Source of the DNA: Acetobacter vaccinii
GTDB taxonomy: Bacteria; Pseudomonadota; Alphaproteobacteria; Acetobacterales; Acetobacteraceae
NCBI RefSeq assembly: GCF_008365315.1
Contig: NZ_CP043506.1
Span: 2,750,619 to 2,814,618, forward strand
Direction: 5' to 3'
Length of the DNA: 64,000 nt
Part shown: piece by piece, positions 3,938 through 49,922 of the stretch
How positions within the stretch are numbered: position 1 is the first letter of the stretch
Layout of the letters: every line of letters starts with the position of its first letter
Made by a program: the position numbers and the translations under genes
The notes under the pieces: model-generated
Database searches by the model: none
Seen by the model: only the letters and a program-made list of their open reading frames with translations
What the model was told of the DNA's origin: nothing

Positions 3938-4147
3938 CTCTGTGGAACAGCTGGGGCGGACTCAGCGCAAACCGCAGATTTTCAGCCCTTTCATCGAATT
4001 GCCTTGTTTTTAGGCAGTCCATCTAATCGCTTGATTCTCAATGAAATTCCATGCGTCTGCTTGCAGCCCTCTGATGCGGTTTGAAACTTTTGTTAAAAAC
4101 AGAGGATGTCAAGAGAGAAGTGGACAAAATCTTTTCCCTTTCCCTCT

Positions 4148-5218
4148 TCAATTGATCTCACTTTGTTCTCCGGCCTGCTGCTCGGCCTGTGCCAGAAGCC
4201 GCAGGAAGTTGCCACCCCAGAAGGCTGCTATTTCGCTTTCGTCGTATCCCCGGCGCAGCAGCTCCGCCGTGATGTTCACGCCCTGTGTGGCATCCTGCCA
4301 GTCTTCCAGCGCACCGCCGCCATCGAAGTCGGAGGAAATCCCGACATGCTCAACACCTAACCGGCGCACCACATAGTCGATATGGTCAACAAGGTCGCTG
4401 ACAAACCCTGCCCGCTTGCCTTCCTCCGGCTTGGGTTTGAGAAAAGCAGGCATGGCCGTAATCTGGATCAGCCCGCCACTGGCCCCCAAGGCATCCAACT
4501 GCCCGTCATCCAGATTGCGGGGGTGGTCGCACAGGCTGCGCACGCAGGAATGGCTGGCCACGACGGGGGTGGCTGACACCTCTACCGCCTGCATCATGGT
4601 CTGTCTGGCTGCGTGAGAGACATCAACCAGCAGGCCAAGACGATTCATCTCGGCAACAGCCTCACGGCCCAGAGCAGACAGGCCACCATGCCGCTGTGGT
4701 GTATCCCCAAGGCTGGGGCGGTGAATGGCGGAATCTGCCAGCGCATTGTGCCCGTTATGGGTCAGCGTGACATAACGCGCCCCCTTCTGGCGAAACAGTT
4801 TGAGCATGCCGGGGTCTTCCCCCATGCCATATCCGTTTTCCACCGCCGGGATAACGGCAAGAATACCCGCCGCATGGGCTGCCCGAATGGCAGCAACATC
4901 CGAACAGACCTTGGCCTGCACCCCATTCCGCGTGCCCTGCATACGGTTTATGGCATCCAGCATGTCCAGACACTGCTGTTGCGCCTGGGCGTGGCCCTCC
5001 GCTGTGACTGGCCCCTGCCCCATATAGGCCACAAAGCACCCTGCTGACATGCCGCCCCGCTGCATTTTGGGCAGGTCCACACGGCGGTCAGGAGTATCCT
5101 CAAACGCATCGTCACGGTCTGGCCAGGGAATGTCGATATGGCTGTCCAGAGTCAGCAGCGCATTGTGCAGGTCCTGGGCGGAAGAAAAGCCTACGGCGGC
5201 CGTGGTGCGTGACATCAT
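4148..5218 (-). CDS. Membrane-dipeptidase-type (M19) zinc dipeptidase
   Basis: 356 aa from the ATG at 5218 (the next codon is also ATG). Peptidase family M19, related to renal dipeptidase and bacterial PepD/AcdP proteins; it hydrolyses dipeptides and is a TIM-barrel amidohydrolase relative. Visible zinc-site motifs: LDSHIDIPWP (His-x-Asp), AVENGYG (bridging Glu), LTHNGHN, LLVDVSHA and VVASHSCVRSLCDHPRN, with C-terminal GISSDFDGGG. No signal peptide is evident, so it may be cytoplasmic. It is divergent from xthA across ~110 bp. The substrate cannot be told from sequence. Confidence 0.9.
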   Translation of the reverse strand: MMSRTTAAVGFSSAQDLHNALLTLDSHIDIPWPDRDDAFEDTPDRRVDLPKMQRGGMSAGCFVAYMGQGPVTAEGHAQAQQQCLDMLDAINRMQGTRNGVQAKVCSDVAAIRAAHAAGILAVIPAVENGYGMGEDPGMLKLFRQKGARYVTLTHNGHNALADSAIHRPSLGDTPQRHGGLSALGREAVAEMNRLGLLVDVSHAARQTMMQAVEVSATPVVASHSCVRSLCDHPRNLDDGQLDALGASGGLIQITAMPAFLKPKPEEGKRAGFVSDLVDHIDYVVRRLGVEHVGISSDFDGGGALEDWQDATQGVNITAELLRRGYDESEIAAFWGGNFLRLLAQAEQQAGEQSEIN

Positions 5219-44451: not shown

Positions 44452-44955
44452 ATGGCCACGACCACCAGCCCCCGGGTTGGTGTGATCATGGGCAGCCAGT
44501 CCGACTGGGAAACCATGCGCCATGCTCAGGATATCCTGAACACGCTGGAAATCCCGCACGAGGTCAGCATTGTCTCGGCCCACCGCACCCCTGACAGGCT
44601 GGCGGACTATGCCCGCAATGCCGCAGGCCGTGGGCTGTCGGTCATTATCGCGGGGGCGGGCGGGGCTGCCCATCTGCCGGGCATGTGCGCGGCCTGGACC
44701 TGCCTGCCTGTGCTGGGCGTGCCGGTGGAATCCCGCACGCTCAAAGGCATGGACAGCCTACTATCCATTGTGCAGATGCCCGGTGGCGTGCCTGTGGGCA
44801 CACTGGCCATTGGCTCAGCCGGAGCCAAGAACGCAGCCCTGCTGGCGGCCTCCATCCTGGCCCTACAGGACCCTGCCCTGTCCGCCCGCCTGGAAACATG
44901 GCGCGCTCTCCAGACCGCCTCGGTCGCCAACACTCCTGTTACCGAAAACGAATGA
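44452..44955 (+). CDS. purE: N5-carboxyaminoimidazole ribonucleotide mutase
   Basis: 167 aa from ATG 44452, matching the usual class I PurE length; a GTG at 44404 would add 16 residues and cannot be excluded, as neither start has a clear ribosome-binding site. It moves the carboxylate from N5 to C4 of AIR in purine synthesis. Motifs: [18 protein letters not shown] (catalytic His) and [18 protein letters not shown]. Its stop overlaps the purK start (ATGA). Confidence 0.94.
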
Positions 44956-46127
44956 CCCAGAGCACAACCGCACTGGCCCCCGGCGCAGTCATCGGCATTA
45001 TGGGCGGTGGCCAGTTGGGCCGCATGTCCGCTGTGGCTGCCGCCAAGCTTGGCTTCAAGGTGCATGTTTTCACCCAGAATGTCACCGACCCGGCGGTAGA
45101 AGTGGCGCACGCCGTCACGCTCGCCCCCTATGACTCCCCCGAAGCGCTGGAAAGCTTTGCCCGCGCGGTGGATGTTGTCACCTTCGAGTTCGAGAACATT
45201 ACTGCCGATGCGCTGGACCTGCTGGCGCGCCACTGCCCTGTCCGCCCGTCGGGCCGGGTTTTGCGGACGAGTCAGGACCGGCTGGAAGAAAAAACTTTTC
45301 TGGCGTCCATCGGCATCCCTCTGGCCCCCTGGCACCCGGTCACGGCACGGGCCGACCTCCAGACCGCCATGGACACGCTGGGCCTGCCGCTGATCCTCAA
45401 GACCGCGCAGGAAGGGTATGACGGCAAAGGCCAGCGCCGCGTACACCACCCCGATGACCTGAACACCGCGTTTGATGAGCTTGCCCCCCACCCGCTGGTG
45501 GCGGAAGGTATGGTCGACTTTGCCTGCGAGCTGAGCGTGATGGTCATACGCGGGGTTGATGGCACCATCCGCTGCTTTGACACGGTGCAGAACCGCCACT
45601 GGCACGGTATTCTGGACATGACCCTGGCTCCGGCCCCGGTCATGGAAGAAACCGCCCGCAAGGCGCAGGAACTGGCCTGCCGTGTGGCCGAGGCCTTTGA
45701 CCTTGTTGGTATTATGGGCGTGGAAATGTTCCTCGACCACACCGGCGCGCTGCTGGTCAACGAGGTTGCCCCCCGGCCGCATAATTCCGGCCACTGGACC
45801 ATGAATGCCTGCCCGCAGGACCAGTTTGACATGCATATCCGCGCCGTTGCGGGCCTGCCGTTGCCACAGGCCACACGCCACGCCGATGCTGTCATGAAAA
45901 ATCTGGTCGGCCCGGAAGATATGGCTCTCTGGCCAGAAATCCTGAAAACACCCGGCCATATCCCACATCTGTATGGCAAGGCGGATGCCCGTCCTGGCCG
46001 CAAGATGGGCCATGTGAACGTACTGTTTCCCTTTGGCGCACTGCCGGGGGAATTCGGCGTGCAGGATGCTCTGGGCGCATTGGCCACAAAAACAGCAGCC
46101 CCCGCTGATATGGAAGCCATAGACTGA
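44952..46127 (+). CDS. purK: N5-carboxyaminoimidazole ribonucleotide synthase
   Basis: 391 aa. ATP-grasp enzyme that carboxylates AIR with bicarbonate, giving the substrate of PurE. Visible: [11 protein letters not shown] (N-terminal Rossmann-like), [13 protein letters not shown] (ATP loop), [10 protein letters not shown] and [14 protein letters not shown]. The four-base overlap with purE gives translational coupling. Confidence 0.95.
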
Positions 46128-46155: not shown

Positions 46156-46884
46156 CTAAAGCAGTCCTTCCTCCTTCATGCTCAGCATCCGTCCTGCCCC
46201 AATAATCACGTGGTCCCACACGGTCAGGCCGACAACGCCCGCAGCCGCTACAATGCGGGCAGTCATGACAATATCTGCCTCTGACGGCGTAGGGTTGCCG
46301 CTGGGGTGGTTATGGGCCAGCACAAACCCTGCGGCCCCCAACTGCAAAGCACGGCGGACCAACTCCCGCGGGTAAACAGGGGCCTGATCCACAGTCCCGC
46401 GCGCCATGACTTCGTCCCGCAGAAGATACTGCTGGTCATTGAGGAACAGAACACGGATCTGCTCCACTTTTTCATGCCCCATGACACTTTGCAGGTAGGC
46501 ATGCACCTGCGCCCTACCAGACAGAAGATGCCGCTGGCGCATGGCCTCCCGGTGCAAGCGCTGCACCGCCTCACGCACAAGCAGGAGCAAGACACGCACG
46601 GCTTCGGGCTGGCGCTCCAGCACCTCCACCCCCTGACCGGCCGCAGCCAGAAGGGCGAACAGGCTCCCCGCTTCCGCCAGCAACTGCGCTGCCAGAACCT
46701 GCTCGGTGCCAGATGGAACAACCGCCGCCAGCAGTTCTGTCAAAAGCTGACTGTCCTGCCCGGAGGTAGCCTTGCCTGCCGCCACTTTTTCCGGCCAAGT
46801 CCGCAGCAACACCTCCAAACTGCCCGTAAGCATACCCCCGGCATCCTCCAACCCTGTGCCATCAGTGCCTTTGCCTGCGTTCAT
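46156..46884 (-). CDS. RadC-like JAB-domain protein with intact catalytic motif
   Basis: 242 aa from an ATG overlapping the upstream stop (ATGA). The C-terminal RadC/JAB (MPN+) domain is complete: DEVMARGTVDQAPVYPRE (Glu), AHNHPSGNPTPSEAD (His-x-His-Pro...Asp), DHVIIG. The N-terminal ~120 residues align only loosely with the RadC helix-hairpin-helix half (LLTELLAAVVPSGTEQVLAAQLL ... GSLFALL), and that motif is degraded. JAB proteins are zinc proteases or isopeptidases, but the biochemical role of bacterial RadC is unsettled. It is paired with a second RadC that has lost this motif. Confidence 0.88.
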   Translation of the reverse strand: MNAGKGTDGTGLEDAGGMLTGSLEVLLRTWPEKVAAGKATSGQDSQLLTELLAAVVPSGTEQVLAAQLLAEAGSLFALLAAAGQGVEVLERQPEAVRVLLLLVREAVQRLHREAMRQRHLLSGRAQVHAYLQSVMGHEKVEQIRVLFLNDQQYLLRDEVMARGTVDQAPVYPRELVRRALQLGAAGFVLAHNHPSGNPTPSEADIVMTARIVAAAGVVGLTVWDHVIIGAGRMLSMKEEGLL

Positions 46885-47645
46885 CCCCCAGCCCCATCGT
46901 GGGTAAAGCTGCGCCAACCCCCTTGCCCGATCACAAGGTGGCCATAGGCATCCAACGCCAGCAAGGGGGCTGCCTCTGCCACACCAGTGGCAAAGGCTTT
47001 GTCATGCGCCATCATGGCATCAACCCCTTTCCCCCCGCAGCCCAGCCGCACTGTCACCACAGCACAAGCCTGATGCACCAAGGCGCGCCGGATAATCTCG
47101 GTTACACTCTGCTCAAGACTTGCCCCTACCTCAGGCTCTGACAGAGCATCGTCTGCCAGCAGATGGTTCTGACTGTTCAGAAACAGAACACGCAGGTGCG
47201 ACCCCACCACGTCACCGTGTCGGGCTGTGCAATAGCGGACAATGCTGTCCCAGTTTTCCAGCGCCGTGCGTTCAGGCTCGGCCCCCTGCGTGCTGTTGCG
47301 TGCGATGGTCGCCACCACGCCAAACAGGCGGGCACTTGCAGCATTTGCCCCTGCCGCGCGCAACTGATCGGCCGACGCCCCCAGCACAGCCGACAGAGAG
47401 CCAAACTGGTTGATCAACGCCTTGGCCAGCGGTTTGGTGTCCCGCCGGGGTACTCCGGCAAACAGCAGCATTTCCAGCACCTCGTAATCCGCCAGCCCGG
47501 ATGTGCCATTATCCAGCACCCTGCGGCGCATACGCTGCCTGTGCCCACGCGGGCCAGTGCTTGCAAAAACCGGCCGACCAGCCCCCGAGGGAGGCACTGC
47601 TTTGCCCCGCACCTCTGAACGCTCTTTTGGTGGCCCCTGTTCCAT
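46881..47645 (-). CDS. RadC-like protein with intact HhH half and lost JAB motif
   Basis: 254 aa; ATG 47645 with GGAG 8 nt upstream. The N-terminal half is a textbook RadC: LADYEVLEMLLFAGVPRRDTKPLAKALINQFGSLSAVLGA (~51-90). The C-terminal half still aligns (HLRVLFLNSQNHLLADD ... IIRRALVHQACAVVTV). However, the HNHPSG-x-x-P-S-x-x-D site is replaced by RLGCGGKGVDAMMAHD, and the catalytic Glu region is DDALSEPE. It should lack metal-dependent activity. It is translationally coupled to the following RadC gene and 21 bp from divergent uvrD. Confidence 0.87.
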   Translation of the reverse strand: MEQGPPKERSEVRGKAVPPSGAGRPVFASTGPRGHRQRMRRRVLDNGTSGLADYEVLEMLLFAGVPRRDTKPLAKALINQFGSLSAVLGASADQLRAAGANAASARLFGVVATIARNSTQGAEPERTALENWDSIVRYCTARHGDVVGSHLRVLFLNSQNHLLADDALSEPEVGASLEQSVTEIIRRALVHQACAVVTVRLGCGGKGVDAMMAHDKAFATGVAEAAPLLALDAYGHLVIGQGGWRSFTHDGAGG

Positions 47646-47666
47646 CGCCCTACTCCGATTGGCTTA

Positions 47667-49922
47667 ATGCCCGCATCATTCTATAAGGAAGGGGTGTCAA
47701 CTTCAGAACCCTTTTCCGACCCGTCGTTCCCGGCGGCGGCAGGCAGCGATGACAGCTATCTCGCCCGCCTGAACCCCGAACAGCGCGCCGCCATCGAAAC
47801 CACCGATGGCCCCCTGCTGGTTCTTGCCGGTGCGGGCACTGGCAAAACGCGCGTGCTGACAACCCGCTTTGCCCACATCCTGCTGACAGGCCGCGCCAGA
47901 CCATGGCAGATTCTGGCTGTCACCTTTACCAACAAGGCCGCGCGGGAAATGCGTGAGCGCATTGGCACCCTGCTGGGCAGCCCGGCCGAAGGGTTGTGGC
48001 TGGGCACCTTCCACGCCCTGTGCGCGCGCATGCTGCGCCGCCATGCGGAAGTCGTCGGGCTGACACAGAGCTTTACCATCCTGGATACCGATGACCAGCT
48101 GCGCCTGCTCAAGCAAGTTATGGAGCCCTGGCGTATTGACACCAAACGCTGGCCCGCCCCTGGGCTGCTGGGGGCTATCCAGCGCTGGAAGGACCGGGGG
48201 TTAACCCCCGCCCGGGTCACCCCGGCAGAAGACACGGACTTTGCCAATGGTCATGCCCGCGCCATTTACGAGGCGTATCAGACCCGTCTGCGCCAGCTTA
48301 ACGCCTGCGACTTTGGCGACCTGATGTTGCATGTGACGGAAATACTGCGCTCACAGCCCGATATTCTGGCGCAGTACCACCGCCTGTTCCGCTATATCCT
48401 GGTTGACGAATACCAGGACACCAACACCATCCAGTACCTCTGGCTGCGTCTTCTGGCCAAAAACTCCTCCGGCCAGTCCAACATCTGCTGCGTGGGGGAT
48501 GACGACCAGTCGATTTATTCCTGGCGTGGGGCGGAGGTGGAAAATATCCTCCGTTTTGAAAAAGACTTCCCCGGCGCGCAGATTGTCCGCCTTGAGCGCA
48601 ATTATCGCTCTACCCGGCATATTCTGGGGGCTGCCGCAGGCCTGATTGCCCATAATGGGGAAAGGCTGGGCAAAACCCTGCGCTCCGGCCGGGATGATGC
48701 CGAAGGGGACAAGGTTTCCGTCACCGCTGTGTGGGATTCCGACGCCGAGGCCCGGGCTGTTTGTGACACTGCCGAACGCCTGCGTGGGCAGGGACATTCG
48801 CTGGCTGAAATGGCCATTCTTGTCCGGGCGGGCTTTCAGACCCGCGCGTTTGAAGAACAACTGATCCAGAGCGGTCTGCCTTACAGGATTGTCGGCGGCA
48901 CGCGCTTTTACGAACGCTCCGAAATCCGCGATGCCATGGCCTACCTGCGGGTGCTGGCCCAGCCTGCGGATGATCTGGCGTTTGAGCGTATCGTCAACGT
49001 GCCCAAACGTGGCATGGGGCCTGCGGCCCTGCAAAAACTGCATGCTGCCGCCCGGGCTGATGGAGTGTCGCTGGCAATCGTCACCCCTCGCCTGCTGGAC
49101 AACGGCACCCTCAAGGGCCGCTCGGGCGAGCAGGTCCGTGCGCTCATGAACGCCTATGCCAGCACGCATGACATCCTTGCGCGCGAGGGCCATGTGGTTG
49201 CCGCCGAACACCTGCTGGAAGAAAGCGGCTATCTGGACATGTGGCGGCAGGACCGCTCGCCCGAAGCGCCGGGGCGGCTGGAAAACATCAAGGAACTTAT
49301 TCAGGCCCTCGCAGATTTTCCCACCCTTGAAGCCTTTTTGGAACATGTCGCCCTGGTGATGGAAAAGGATGAAAATGCGCAGGATGCGCGCCTGTCCATC
49401 ATGACCCTGCACGGTGCCAAAGGGCTGGAGTTTGACTGTGTGTTTCTGCCCGGTTGGGAGGAAGGGGTTTTCCCCTCCCAGCGCACCCTTGATGAAGGGG
49501 GGCTGAAAGGCCTGGAGGAGGAACGCAGGCTGGCCTATGTGGGCATAACCCGCGCACGCAAGCTGGCCATGATCTTTCACGCGGGCAGCCGCCGCATTTA
49601 TGCCAACTGGCAGCCCTCGATGCCCAGCCGCTTCCTTGAAGAACTGCCTGACGAGCATGTCAGCCGCCACACATCAGGGGGCAGGCAGCAACGCGGCTTG
49701 CAGGCGGCACAGTCCCTCTTTTCCGACGGGCCGGTTGTCGCCAGCCGCACCAGACGGCCCAGCAACGCTGATACCCCTGCTCCTTTCCAACCTGGTGACC
49801 ATGTCCGCCACGCCCGCTTTGGCGTTGGCATTGTCCTGTCCGCCGACCGCCACCAGGTCGAAATCGTGTTTGAAACCGCAGGCACCAAACGACTTCTGTC
49901 CTCTTTTATCGAGAAACTGTAA
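47667..49922 (+). CDS. uvrD: ATP-dependent DNA helicase UvrD/PcrA
   Basis: 751 aa. SF1A 3'-5' helicase for excision repair, mismatch repair and clearing replication blocks. Walker A AGAGTGKTR (~50), GTFHALCARMLRR, YILVDEYQDTN (motif II), GDDDQSIYSWRGA (motif III), MTLHGAKGLEFD (motif V), YVGITRARK (motif VI). The C-terminal Tudor-like segment (FQPGDHVRHARFGVGIVL) is the usual RNA polymerase-contact region. ATG 47667 has no ribosome-binding site; a GTG at 47694, just after AAGGAAGG, is a strong alternative start. Confidence 0.95.
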   Translation: MPASFYKEGVSTSEPFSDPSFPAAAGSDDSYLARLNPEQRAAIETTDGPLLVLAGAGTGKTRVLTTRFAHILLTGRARPWQILAVTFTNKAAREMRERIGTLLGSPAEGLWLGTFHALCARMLRRHAEVVGLTQSFTILDTDDQLRLLKQVMEPWRIDTKRWPAPGLLGAIQRWKDRGLTPARVTPAEDTDFANGHARAIYEAYQTRLRQLNACDFGDLMLHVTEILRSQPDILAQYHRLFRYILVDEYQDTNTIQYLWLRLLAKNSSGQSNICCVGDDDQSIYSWRGAEVENILRFEKDFPGAQIVRLERNYRSTRHILGAAAGLIAHNGERLGKTLRSGRDDAEGDKVSVTAVWDSDAEARAVCDTAERLRGQGHSLAEMAILVRAGFQTRAFEEQLIQSGLPYRIVGGTRFYERSEIRDAMAYLRVLAQPADDLAFERIVNVPKRGMGPAALQKLHAAARADGVSLAIVTPRLLDNGTLKGRSGEQVRALMNAYASTHDILAREGHVVAAEHLLEESGYLDMWRQDRSPEAPGRLENIKELIQALADFPTLEAFLEHVALVMEKDENAQDARLSIMTLHGAKGLEFDCVFLPGWEEGVFPSQRTLDEGGLKGLEEERRLAYVGITRARKLAMIFHAGSRRIYANWQPSMPSRFLEELPDEHVSRHTSGGRQQRGLQAAQSLFSDGPVVASRTRRPSNADTPAPFQPGDHVRHARFGVGIVLSADRHQVEIVFETAGTKRLLSSFIEKL

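What the first reader, a model, noticed from the sequence alone, without database searches (positions are those of the whole stretch)
46156..47645. Two coupled RadC-like genes with complementary losses
Two adjacent RadC-family genes overlap as ATGA. The first keeps a full helix-hairpin-helix half but has lost the JAB metal site: HNHPSG...D is replaced by RLGCGGKGVDAMMAHD and the Glu region is altered. The second keeps a perfect JAB site (AHNHPSGNPTPSEAD) but its N-terminal DNA-binding half is eroded. This looks like duplication followed by splitting of functions, perhaps an obligate heterodimer with one DNA-binding and one catalytic subunit, like MPN+/MPN- pairs in eukaryotes. The start of the first is 21 bp from divergent uvrD, suggesting a DNA-repair link.
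Basis: partly seen in the sequence, partly recalled or inferred. Interest (0 to 1): 0.78.

Follow-up and report, generated by a model that had tools for sequence, protein, structure and literature searches.

The report
Split RadC: docking and catalytic paralogues
In acetic acid bacteria the poorly understood RadC protein exists as two separate proteins, one that kept the conserved front end and one that kept the metal-dependent active site, which probably work together as a pair and offer a way to find out what RadC does.

Summary
Window 46881-47645(-) encodes a RadC paralogue (N) that has lost the JAMM ligands HxH..D; 46156-46884(-) encodes one (C) with a perfect HNHPSG..D site but no UPF0758 N-block. 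They overlap as ATGA. Both copies are found in 48 of 48 other Acetobacter genomes (a few broken), HxHP in 0 of 48 N and 48 of 48 C, and in at least 29 of 91 Acetobacteraceae genera sampled. Each type has one origin (100/99 each). Residue losses are complementary, and each protein is most constrained where the other is loosest. Two lineages carry N and C fused. Of 49 genomes checked by profile, 44 have both, one the fusion, four neither, none one alone; outside this set one genome has a C-like gene without N. Best reading: tandem duplication, then complementary loss, giving a two-subunit RadC that works like eukaryotic MPN+/MPN- pairs. Contact and activity are inferred, not shown.

The parts
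46881..47645 (-). radC-N gene, MPN- paralogue, 254 aa (first gene of the pair)
46156..46884 (-). radC-C gene, MPN+ paralogue, 242 aa from the overlapping ATG
46881..46884 (-). ATGA stop/start overlap (probable translational coupling)
   Evidence: a start codon overlapping N's stop by 4 bases is possible in 24 of 45 related pair loci read
47421..47546 (-). N-block of N (GHRQRMR...DYEVLEM...RRDTKPLAK, residues 34-75), not kept in C
   Evidence: H35, R36, R38, R40, D53, E55, E58, D69, K71 in 111 of 111 N
47001..47048 (-). degenerate JAMM site of N (RLGCGGKGVDAMMAHD, residues 200-215)
   Evidence: first His kept in 11 of 111 N; second His not among the five commonest residues at its column
46273..46317 (-). 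intact JAMM site of C (AHNHPSGNPTPSEAD, residues 190-204)
   Evidence: H191, N192, H193, P194, S195, G196, S201, D204 invariant in 53 of 53 C
46393..46425 (-). C segment LLRDEVMARGT (residues 154-164) carrying the JAMM glutamate E158
   Evidence: Glu in 50 of 53 C and 102 of 111 N
47646..47666 (.). 21-bp divergent intergenic region between radC-N and uvrD
47667..49922 (+). uvrD, conserved divergent neighbour in many acetic acid bacteria (named by similarity)
   Evidence: ORF; synteny
44952..46127 (+). purK, conserved convergent neighbour of radC-C (named by similarity)
   Evidence: start located; synteny

Best explanation
The two genes are one functional RadC split over two polypeptides. An Acetobacteraceae RadC duplicated in tandem. 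One copy (N) kept the Arg-rich UPF0758 N-block and the MPN fold but lost the zinc ligands. The other (C) kept a perfect JAMM zinc site but lost the N-block. In most carriers the pair stands in place of single-chain RadC. Most likely they form an MPN+/MPN- heteromer in which C hydrolyses a still unknown bond and N docks DNA or a partner and supports the active subunit, as the MPN- protein KIAA0157 does for BRCC36. Shown here: sequences, complementary losses, single origins, constraint, co-occurrence, coupling and natural fusions. Inferred: physical contact, docking by N, catalysis by C.
For: Both copies in 48 of 48 genus genomes, HxHP in 0 of 48 N and 48 of 48 C, assignment by overall similarity. 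Nine N-block residues in 111 of 111 N and 76-77 of 77 canonical RadC; JAMM H, H, P, S, G, S, D in 53 of 53 C and 77 of 77 canonical but mostly replaced in N. Single origins: N 100/99, C 100/99 bootstrap/SH-aLRT, on 11 N and 12 C rows; 100 and 98 SH-aLRT on 49 and 48 rows. Pooled dN/dS of 9 disjoint Acetobacter pairs: N 0.074 N-block, 0.134 second hairpin, 0.168 JAB; C 0.202 front part, 0.080 JAB; uvrD 0.062, purK 0.068. Of 49 genomes 44 both, 1 fused, 4 neither, 0 single, by profile scores. Fusions in Formicincola oecophyllae, 621 aa, and a 523-aa frame of G185; their halves fall in the N clade (100) and C clade (99). 17 of 48 Acetobacter genomes have N and C on separate fetched loci, yet keep both (G016 has them at two contig ends, so possibly one locus). 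Start/stop overlap of 4 bases possible in 24 of 45 loci. MPN fold predicted for both.
Against: No interface was modelled (searches failed to give a joint alignment). Mirror-tree signal is modest: N-C partial r 0.447, N-purE 0.409. G174 has a C-like copy without N beside two canonical copies. G104, G127, G142, G160 and G202 have a further strong PF04002 match besides the pair, and G185 a second, fused pair, so replacement is not complete. The G185 fusion coexists with an ordinary pair and its N half is very divergent. Broken copies: C in G005 and G029, both in G010, C in two frames in G104; the match holds an in-frame stop in G240 N and G198 C. The quick tree put C weakly (73) apart from the canonical type that one search gives. 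RadC has no agreed activity, so the division of labour cannot be tied to an assay.
Confidence: 0.65

Rival explanations
1. Subfunctionalised but separate proteins: N acts alone as a DNA- or partner-binding factor and C alone as an enzyme. Both are kept because both halves of the old function are needed, without touching each other.
For: In 17 of 48 Acetobacter genomes the genes are on separate fetched loci and both persist; C keeps its own helical front domain in the AF2 model.
Against: Two N-C fusions in different lineages, stop/start coupling in several lineages, and N still keeps the MPN fold under purifying selection, which a lone N-block binder would not need.
Confidence: 0.22
2. N is a pseudo-MPN regulator or decoy that tunes or blocks C rather than adding a missing function.
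For: Pseudoenzyme paralogues often regulate their active relative (established knowledge, not searched); N's MPN fold is predicted without ligands.
Against: C itself lacks the N-block that all 77 canonical sequences keep, so C looks incomplete without N, which a mere inhibitor does not explain.
Confidence: 0.1
3. N is a decaying duplicate and C the only functional RadC; adjacency is a leftover of the tandem duplication.
For: N's JAB half evolves faster than its N-block (0.168 against 0.074); N is in two frames in G010.
Against: N present in 48 of 48 genus genomes, N-block dN/dS close to uvrD's (0.074 against 0.062), nine residues invariant in 111 sequences, no genome of the 49 checked has C without N; G174 is an exception outside that set.
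Confidence: 0.03

Closest known systems
Canonical RadC (TIGR00608 / NF000642; PF20582 + PF04002)
   Same: Both proteins are homologous to it over most of their length; C keeps the JAMM motif, N the UPF0758 block; single-chain relatives in the same family carry both
   Different: The two conserved halves sit on two polypeptides; N lacks the zinc site, C lacks the N-block
Eukaryotic MPN+/MPN- pairs: BRCC36-KIAA0157/Abraxas, Rpn11-Rpn8, CSN5-CSN6 (PMC4579573: summary and 12 passages seen)
XPF-ERCC1 / Mus81-Eme1 / FANCM-FAAP24 (pairs of a catalytic and a non-catalytic paralogue with (HhH)2 domains: recalled, not from a call)

Membership tests
RadC (N protein) | PF04002 over curated cut-off | tested here: met
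   40.0 bits against 22.1
RadC (N protein) | PF20582 UPF0758_N over cut-off | tested here: met
   27.7 bits against 27.1
RadC (N protein) | TIGR00608 / NF000642 full-length RadC cut-offs | tested here: not met
   88.2 against 133.85 and 91.2 against 180
RadC (N protein) | JAMM ligands HxHPSG...D | tested here: not met
   RLGCGGKGVDAMMAHD in the window; HxHP in 0 of 48 genus N
RadC (C protein) | PF04002 and TIGR00608 over cut-off | tested here: met
   134.8 against 22.1 and 158 against 133.85 bits
RadC (C protein) | NF000642 equivalog cut-off | tested here: not met
   163.7 against 180
RadC (C protein) | UPF0758_N block | tested here: not met
   no PF20582 hit listed up to E 10
MPN+/MPN- heterodimer | one intact and one ligand-less MPN subunit, paralogous | tested here: met
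   sequence and predicted fold
MPN+/MPN- heterodimer | direct MPN-MPN contact | not testable with these tools
   no multimer modelling; fusions and coupling are indirect
MPN+/MPN- heterodimer | hydrolase activity that needs the MPN- partner | not testable with these tools
   bench assay needed
(HhH)2 DNA-binding domain (N) | two HhH hairpins with GxG | tested here: inconclusive

The most novel reading that the evidence does not exclude
A bacterial MPN+/MPN- heterodimer: RadC became an obligate two-subunit enzyme by tandem duplication and complementary loss, with the pseudo-MPN subunit carrying the DNA- or partner-docking block in trans. It parallels the eukaryotic proteasome-lid, signalosome and BRISC pairs and arose within one bacterial family.
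Probability: 0.55. Interest if true: 0.75.

Novelty: new variant of a known kind. Interest (0 to 1): 0.62.

Why it matters
RadC is widely distributed (PMC5512222, passage; PF04002 rings in 8 of 14 control genomes), yet its role is disputed: a passage of PMC11981726 says that E. coli radC mutants show normal sensitivity to DNA damage, and PMC5512222 (passage) offers nucleic-acid processing as a hypothesis. A natural split separates the two conserved halves of RadC into proteins that can be deleted, mixed and assayed one by one, with natural fusions and canonical single-chain relatives as controls. It would also be an MPN+/MPN- pairing reached independently in bacteria.

Tried and rejected
Heterodimer model. 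I tried to build one alignment for a linked N-C chain (L113, where N and C are in one frame separated by one stop, with L181, L125 and the natural fusion P0241 as further linked rows in the second attempt). MAFFT laid the N and C MPN halves on each other in both attempts (A3, A4), so nothing linked was folded; the two AF2 jobs went to N and C alone.

Mirror-tree: N-C partial r 0.447 (0 of 2000 permutations as high given uvrD, purK, purE), but N-purE 0.409 and C-purK 0.324, so it is not used as proof. The 230-pair dN/dS table has high dS (medians 0.96-1.65) and non-independent pairs; I rely on the 9 disjoint pairs. Both use the 27 genomes of the coupled group that have all five genes.

Pseudogene and sporadic-pair readings were set aside. 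That the uvrD neighbourhood is ancestral was set aside: none of the loci labelled canonical (X) showed uvrD, except L248, which is the fusion.

Rows dropped or chosen. Tree 1 left out N_L084, C_L041, C_L037, N_L041, C_L071 (fragments or broken). Tree 2 left out the L248, L254, L255, L256 rows and C_L223; its X_L235 is really C (identical to C_L145). Tree 3 used only 11 N, 12 C and 64 canonical rows, with 11 chosen outgroup rows. In one search the whole fusion C_L248 was left in by mistake and captured FN_L248; repeated without it and without N_L286, C_L245, C_L253. dN/dS left out L037, L041, L050. A5 holds 102 of the 111 database proteins sorted as N, A6 37 of the 50 sorted as C: of the 13 left out, 11 were canonical by eye and 2 long. 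Sorting used the motifs themselves, so the JAMM contrast is partly built in; one search is not sorted that way. Fifteen A6 rows were cut to their last 235 residues and several others start late, so gaps at the N-block columns of C (38 of 53 at His35) overstate loss there; the uncut C rows show no N-block either.

Literature (listings): I saw no title or abstract start that describes such a RadC pair; the library holds few subscription papers and PMC2519389 is not held, so absence from print is not claimed. PMC5571576 (passages) lists a Zymomonas radC among thermotolerance genes.

Full report
WHAT IS THERE. The minus strand carries two overlapping RadC-family genes: N, 46881-47645 (254 aa), and C, 46156-46884 (242 aa), which starts inside N's stop as ATGA. 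uvrD starts 21 bp upstream of N on the other strand; 28 bp separate C's stop from the end of purK. Pfam finds the RadC JAB domain in both (C 134.8 bits, N 40.0) and the UPF0758 N-terminal domain in N only (27.7 bits, cut-off 27.1). The own genome has no other PF04002 match.

IS IT GENERAL? In 48 of 48 other genomes of the genus both genes are detectable; the HxHP motif is in none of the 48 N and in all 48 C. C is in pieces in G005 and G029; in G010 N is in two frames and C's JAB is disrupted, with part of it on another contig; in G030 N is cut by a contig end. In 31 of 48 the two were found in one locus, in 17 on two fetched loci, G016 probably only because of a contig gap. Among one genome for each of 79 further genera (G100-G178), 25 have an N and a C, one of them fused; with g1, g2, g9 and g10 this makes at least 29 of 91 genera. 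In G057 the N is a fragment at a contig end and in G104 C lies in two frames. Four of the 79 have no match. Most of the rest show only strong matches; those whose sequence I read from such genomes (L257-L262, L263-L282) carry both halves. L254, L255 and L256 are partial or odd and were not classed. Named carriers: Acetobacter, Gluconobacter, Asaia, Acidomonas, Tanticharoenia, Roseomonas mucosa, R. acroporae. Of 40 genomes from other families of the class, six have no match, 32 a single match, and two a second one (G071, 92 bits, fragment; G078, 19.7 bits); no clear pair.

COMPLEMENTARY LOSS. In an alignment of 111 N, 53 C and 77 canonical proteins, His35, Arg36, Arg38, Arg40, Asp53, Glu55, Glu58, Asp69 and Lys71 of the N-block are in 111 of 111 N and 76-77 of 77 canonical. 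In C, His35 and Arg36 remain in 2 of 53 each, Asp69 in 13, Asp53 in 40; 38 of 53 have a gap at His35, partly because rows were cut or start late. Both JAMM histidines, P, S, G, S and D are in 53 of 53 C and 77 of 77 canonical. In N the first His remains in 11 of 111, the second is not among the five commonest residues, G remains in 69, D in 40. The JAMM Glu is kept in 102 of 111 N. The second hairpin keeps its second Gly in 21 of 111 N and 26 of 53 C; neither window protein has it. The sequences were sorted by these motifs, which builds in part of the contrast; the 48-genome count, sorted by overall similarity, is free of that.

ORIGIN. N and C each form one clade: SH-aLRT 100 and 98 on 49 and 48 rows, bootstrap/SH-aLRT 100/99 each on 11 and 12 rows, 100 and 99 with the fusion halves added. 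In one search C lies within one of two canonical RadC types of Acetobacteraceae (fork 97/97) and N beside the same group (fork 95/94); in the quick tree the split was weak and different (73), so the parent type is likely, not certain. Intact tandem copies exist in G174 (L252). A tandem duplication followed by complementary loss is the simplest history.

SELECTION. For nine disjoint Acetobacter pairs, pooled dN/dS is 0.074 in N's N-block, 0.134 in its second-hairpin stretch, 0.168 in its JAB half; 0.202 in C's front part, 0.080 in C's JAB; uvrD 0.062, purK 0.068. Each protein is tight where the other is looser, and all parts are far below 1.

LINKAGE. In many acetic acid bacteria the order prmA-uvrD | N, (gph-like gene on the other strand), C, purK-purE is conserved; where that gene was not found, N and C are directly adjacent, as in the Acetobacter core group, Gluconobacter and small-genome genera such as L226, L237, L244 and L247. 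A start overlapping N's stop by 4 bases is possible in 24 of 45 loci, and others have a start within about 10 bases; L145 and L235 are one sequence, and three loci list none. In Roseomonas-type loci (L130, L145, L181) the pair is adjacent without uvrD. In L241 and L249 the two are on opposite strands.

FUSIONS AND CO-OCCURRENCE. A Formicincola oecophyllae protein of 621 aa (annotated hypothetical / MPN domain) carries an N-block and a ligand-less MPN, then an intact C JAB; the 27 other hits cover at most 25% of it. A 523-aa frame in G185 holds N-like and C-like parts (118.7 and 259.9 bits); the same genome also has an ordinary pair. The four halves fall in the N clade (100) or C clade (99), the two C halves near different lineages, on long branches. 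Of 49 genomes chosen from pair-bearing genera plus some without RadC, 44 have both, one the fusion, four neither, none one alone, judged by profile scores and mostly not read; in G240 N and G198 C the match holds an in-frame stop. Exceptions and limits: G174, outside this set, has a C-like gene without N beside two canonical copies; G104, G127, G142, G160 and G202 have a further strong match besides the pair.

MECHANISM. Most likely C is the zinc hydrolase, and N supplies the N-block in trans and holds C, in a heteromer like BRCC36-KIAA0157, where the MPN- protein is needed for activity (PMC4579573, summary and passages). The docking target (DNA or protein) and the bond cut are unknown. PMC5512222 (passages) proposes nucleic-acid processing for RadC JABs; PMC11981726 (passages) notes normal damage sensitivity of E. 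coli radC mutants. Contact between N and C is not shown here.

VERDICT. Observation confirmed and widened; interpretation right in direction, unproven in its central claim. Filed as a new variant of a known kind.

Noticed in passing
L188:4935-5687 (Sphingomonadales Ga0077531): A RadC with N-block and HhH but with the HNHPSG segment shortened to HNR: a JAMM-less RadC outside Acetobacteraceae; a partner was not looked for.
   Followed up: no
L284 and L283 (genome G185): One genome has an ordinary adjacent N-C pair (TAG directly followed by ATG) and also a fused N-C gene.
   Followed up: partly
L166:5677-6375, L131:6306-7109, L062:5426-6127: A HAD phosphatase-like gene (called gph-like here by the look of its sequence) sits on the opposite strand between N and C in several genera and was not found where N and C are coupled.
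   Followed up: partly
P0242, P0243, P0247: Some RadC-family proteins carry an extra precomputed PF13541 domain besides the RadC domains.
   Followed up: no
L136:3006-5714 and 4003-4758 (Elioraea tepidiphila); L252 (G174): Two intact canonical RadC reading frames side by side or overlapping, which may resemble the state before the split.
   Followed up: partly
L152:4338-5687: Otherwise canonical RadC with HNPPSG instead of HNHPSG.
   Followed up: no
G116, G190 (genus g69), G113, G157: Acetobacteraceae genomes without a detectable RadC, two of them in one or two contigs, so RadC seems dispensable there.
   Followed up: partly
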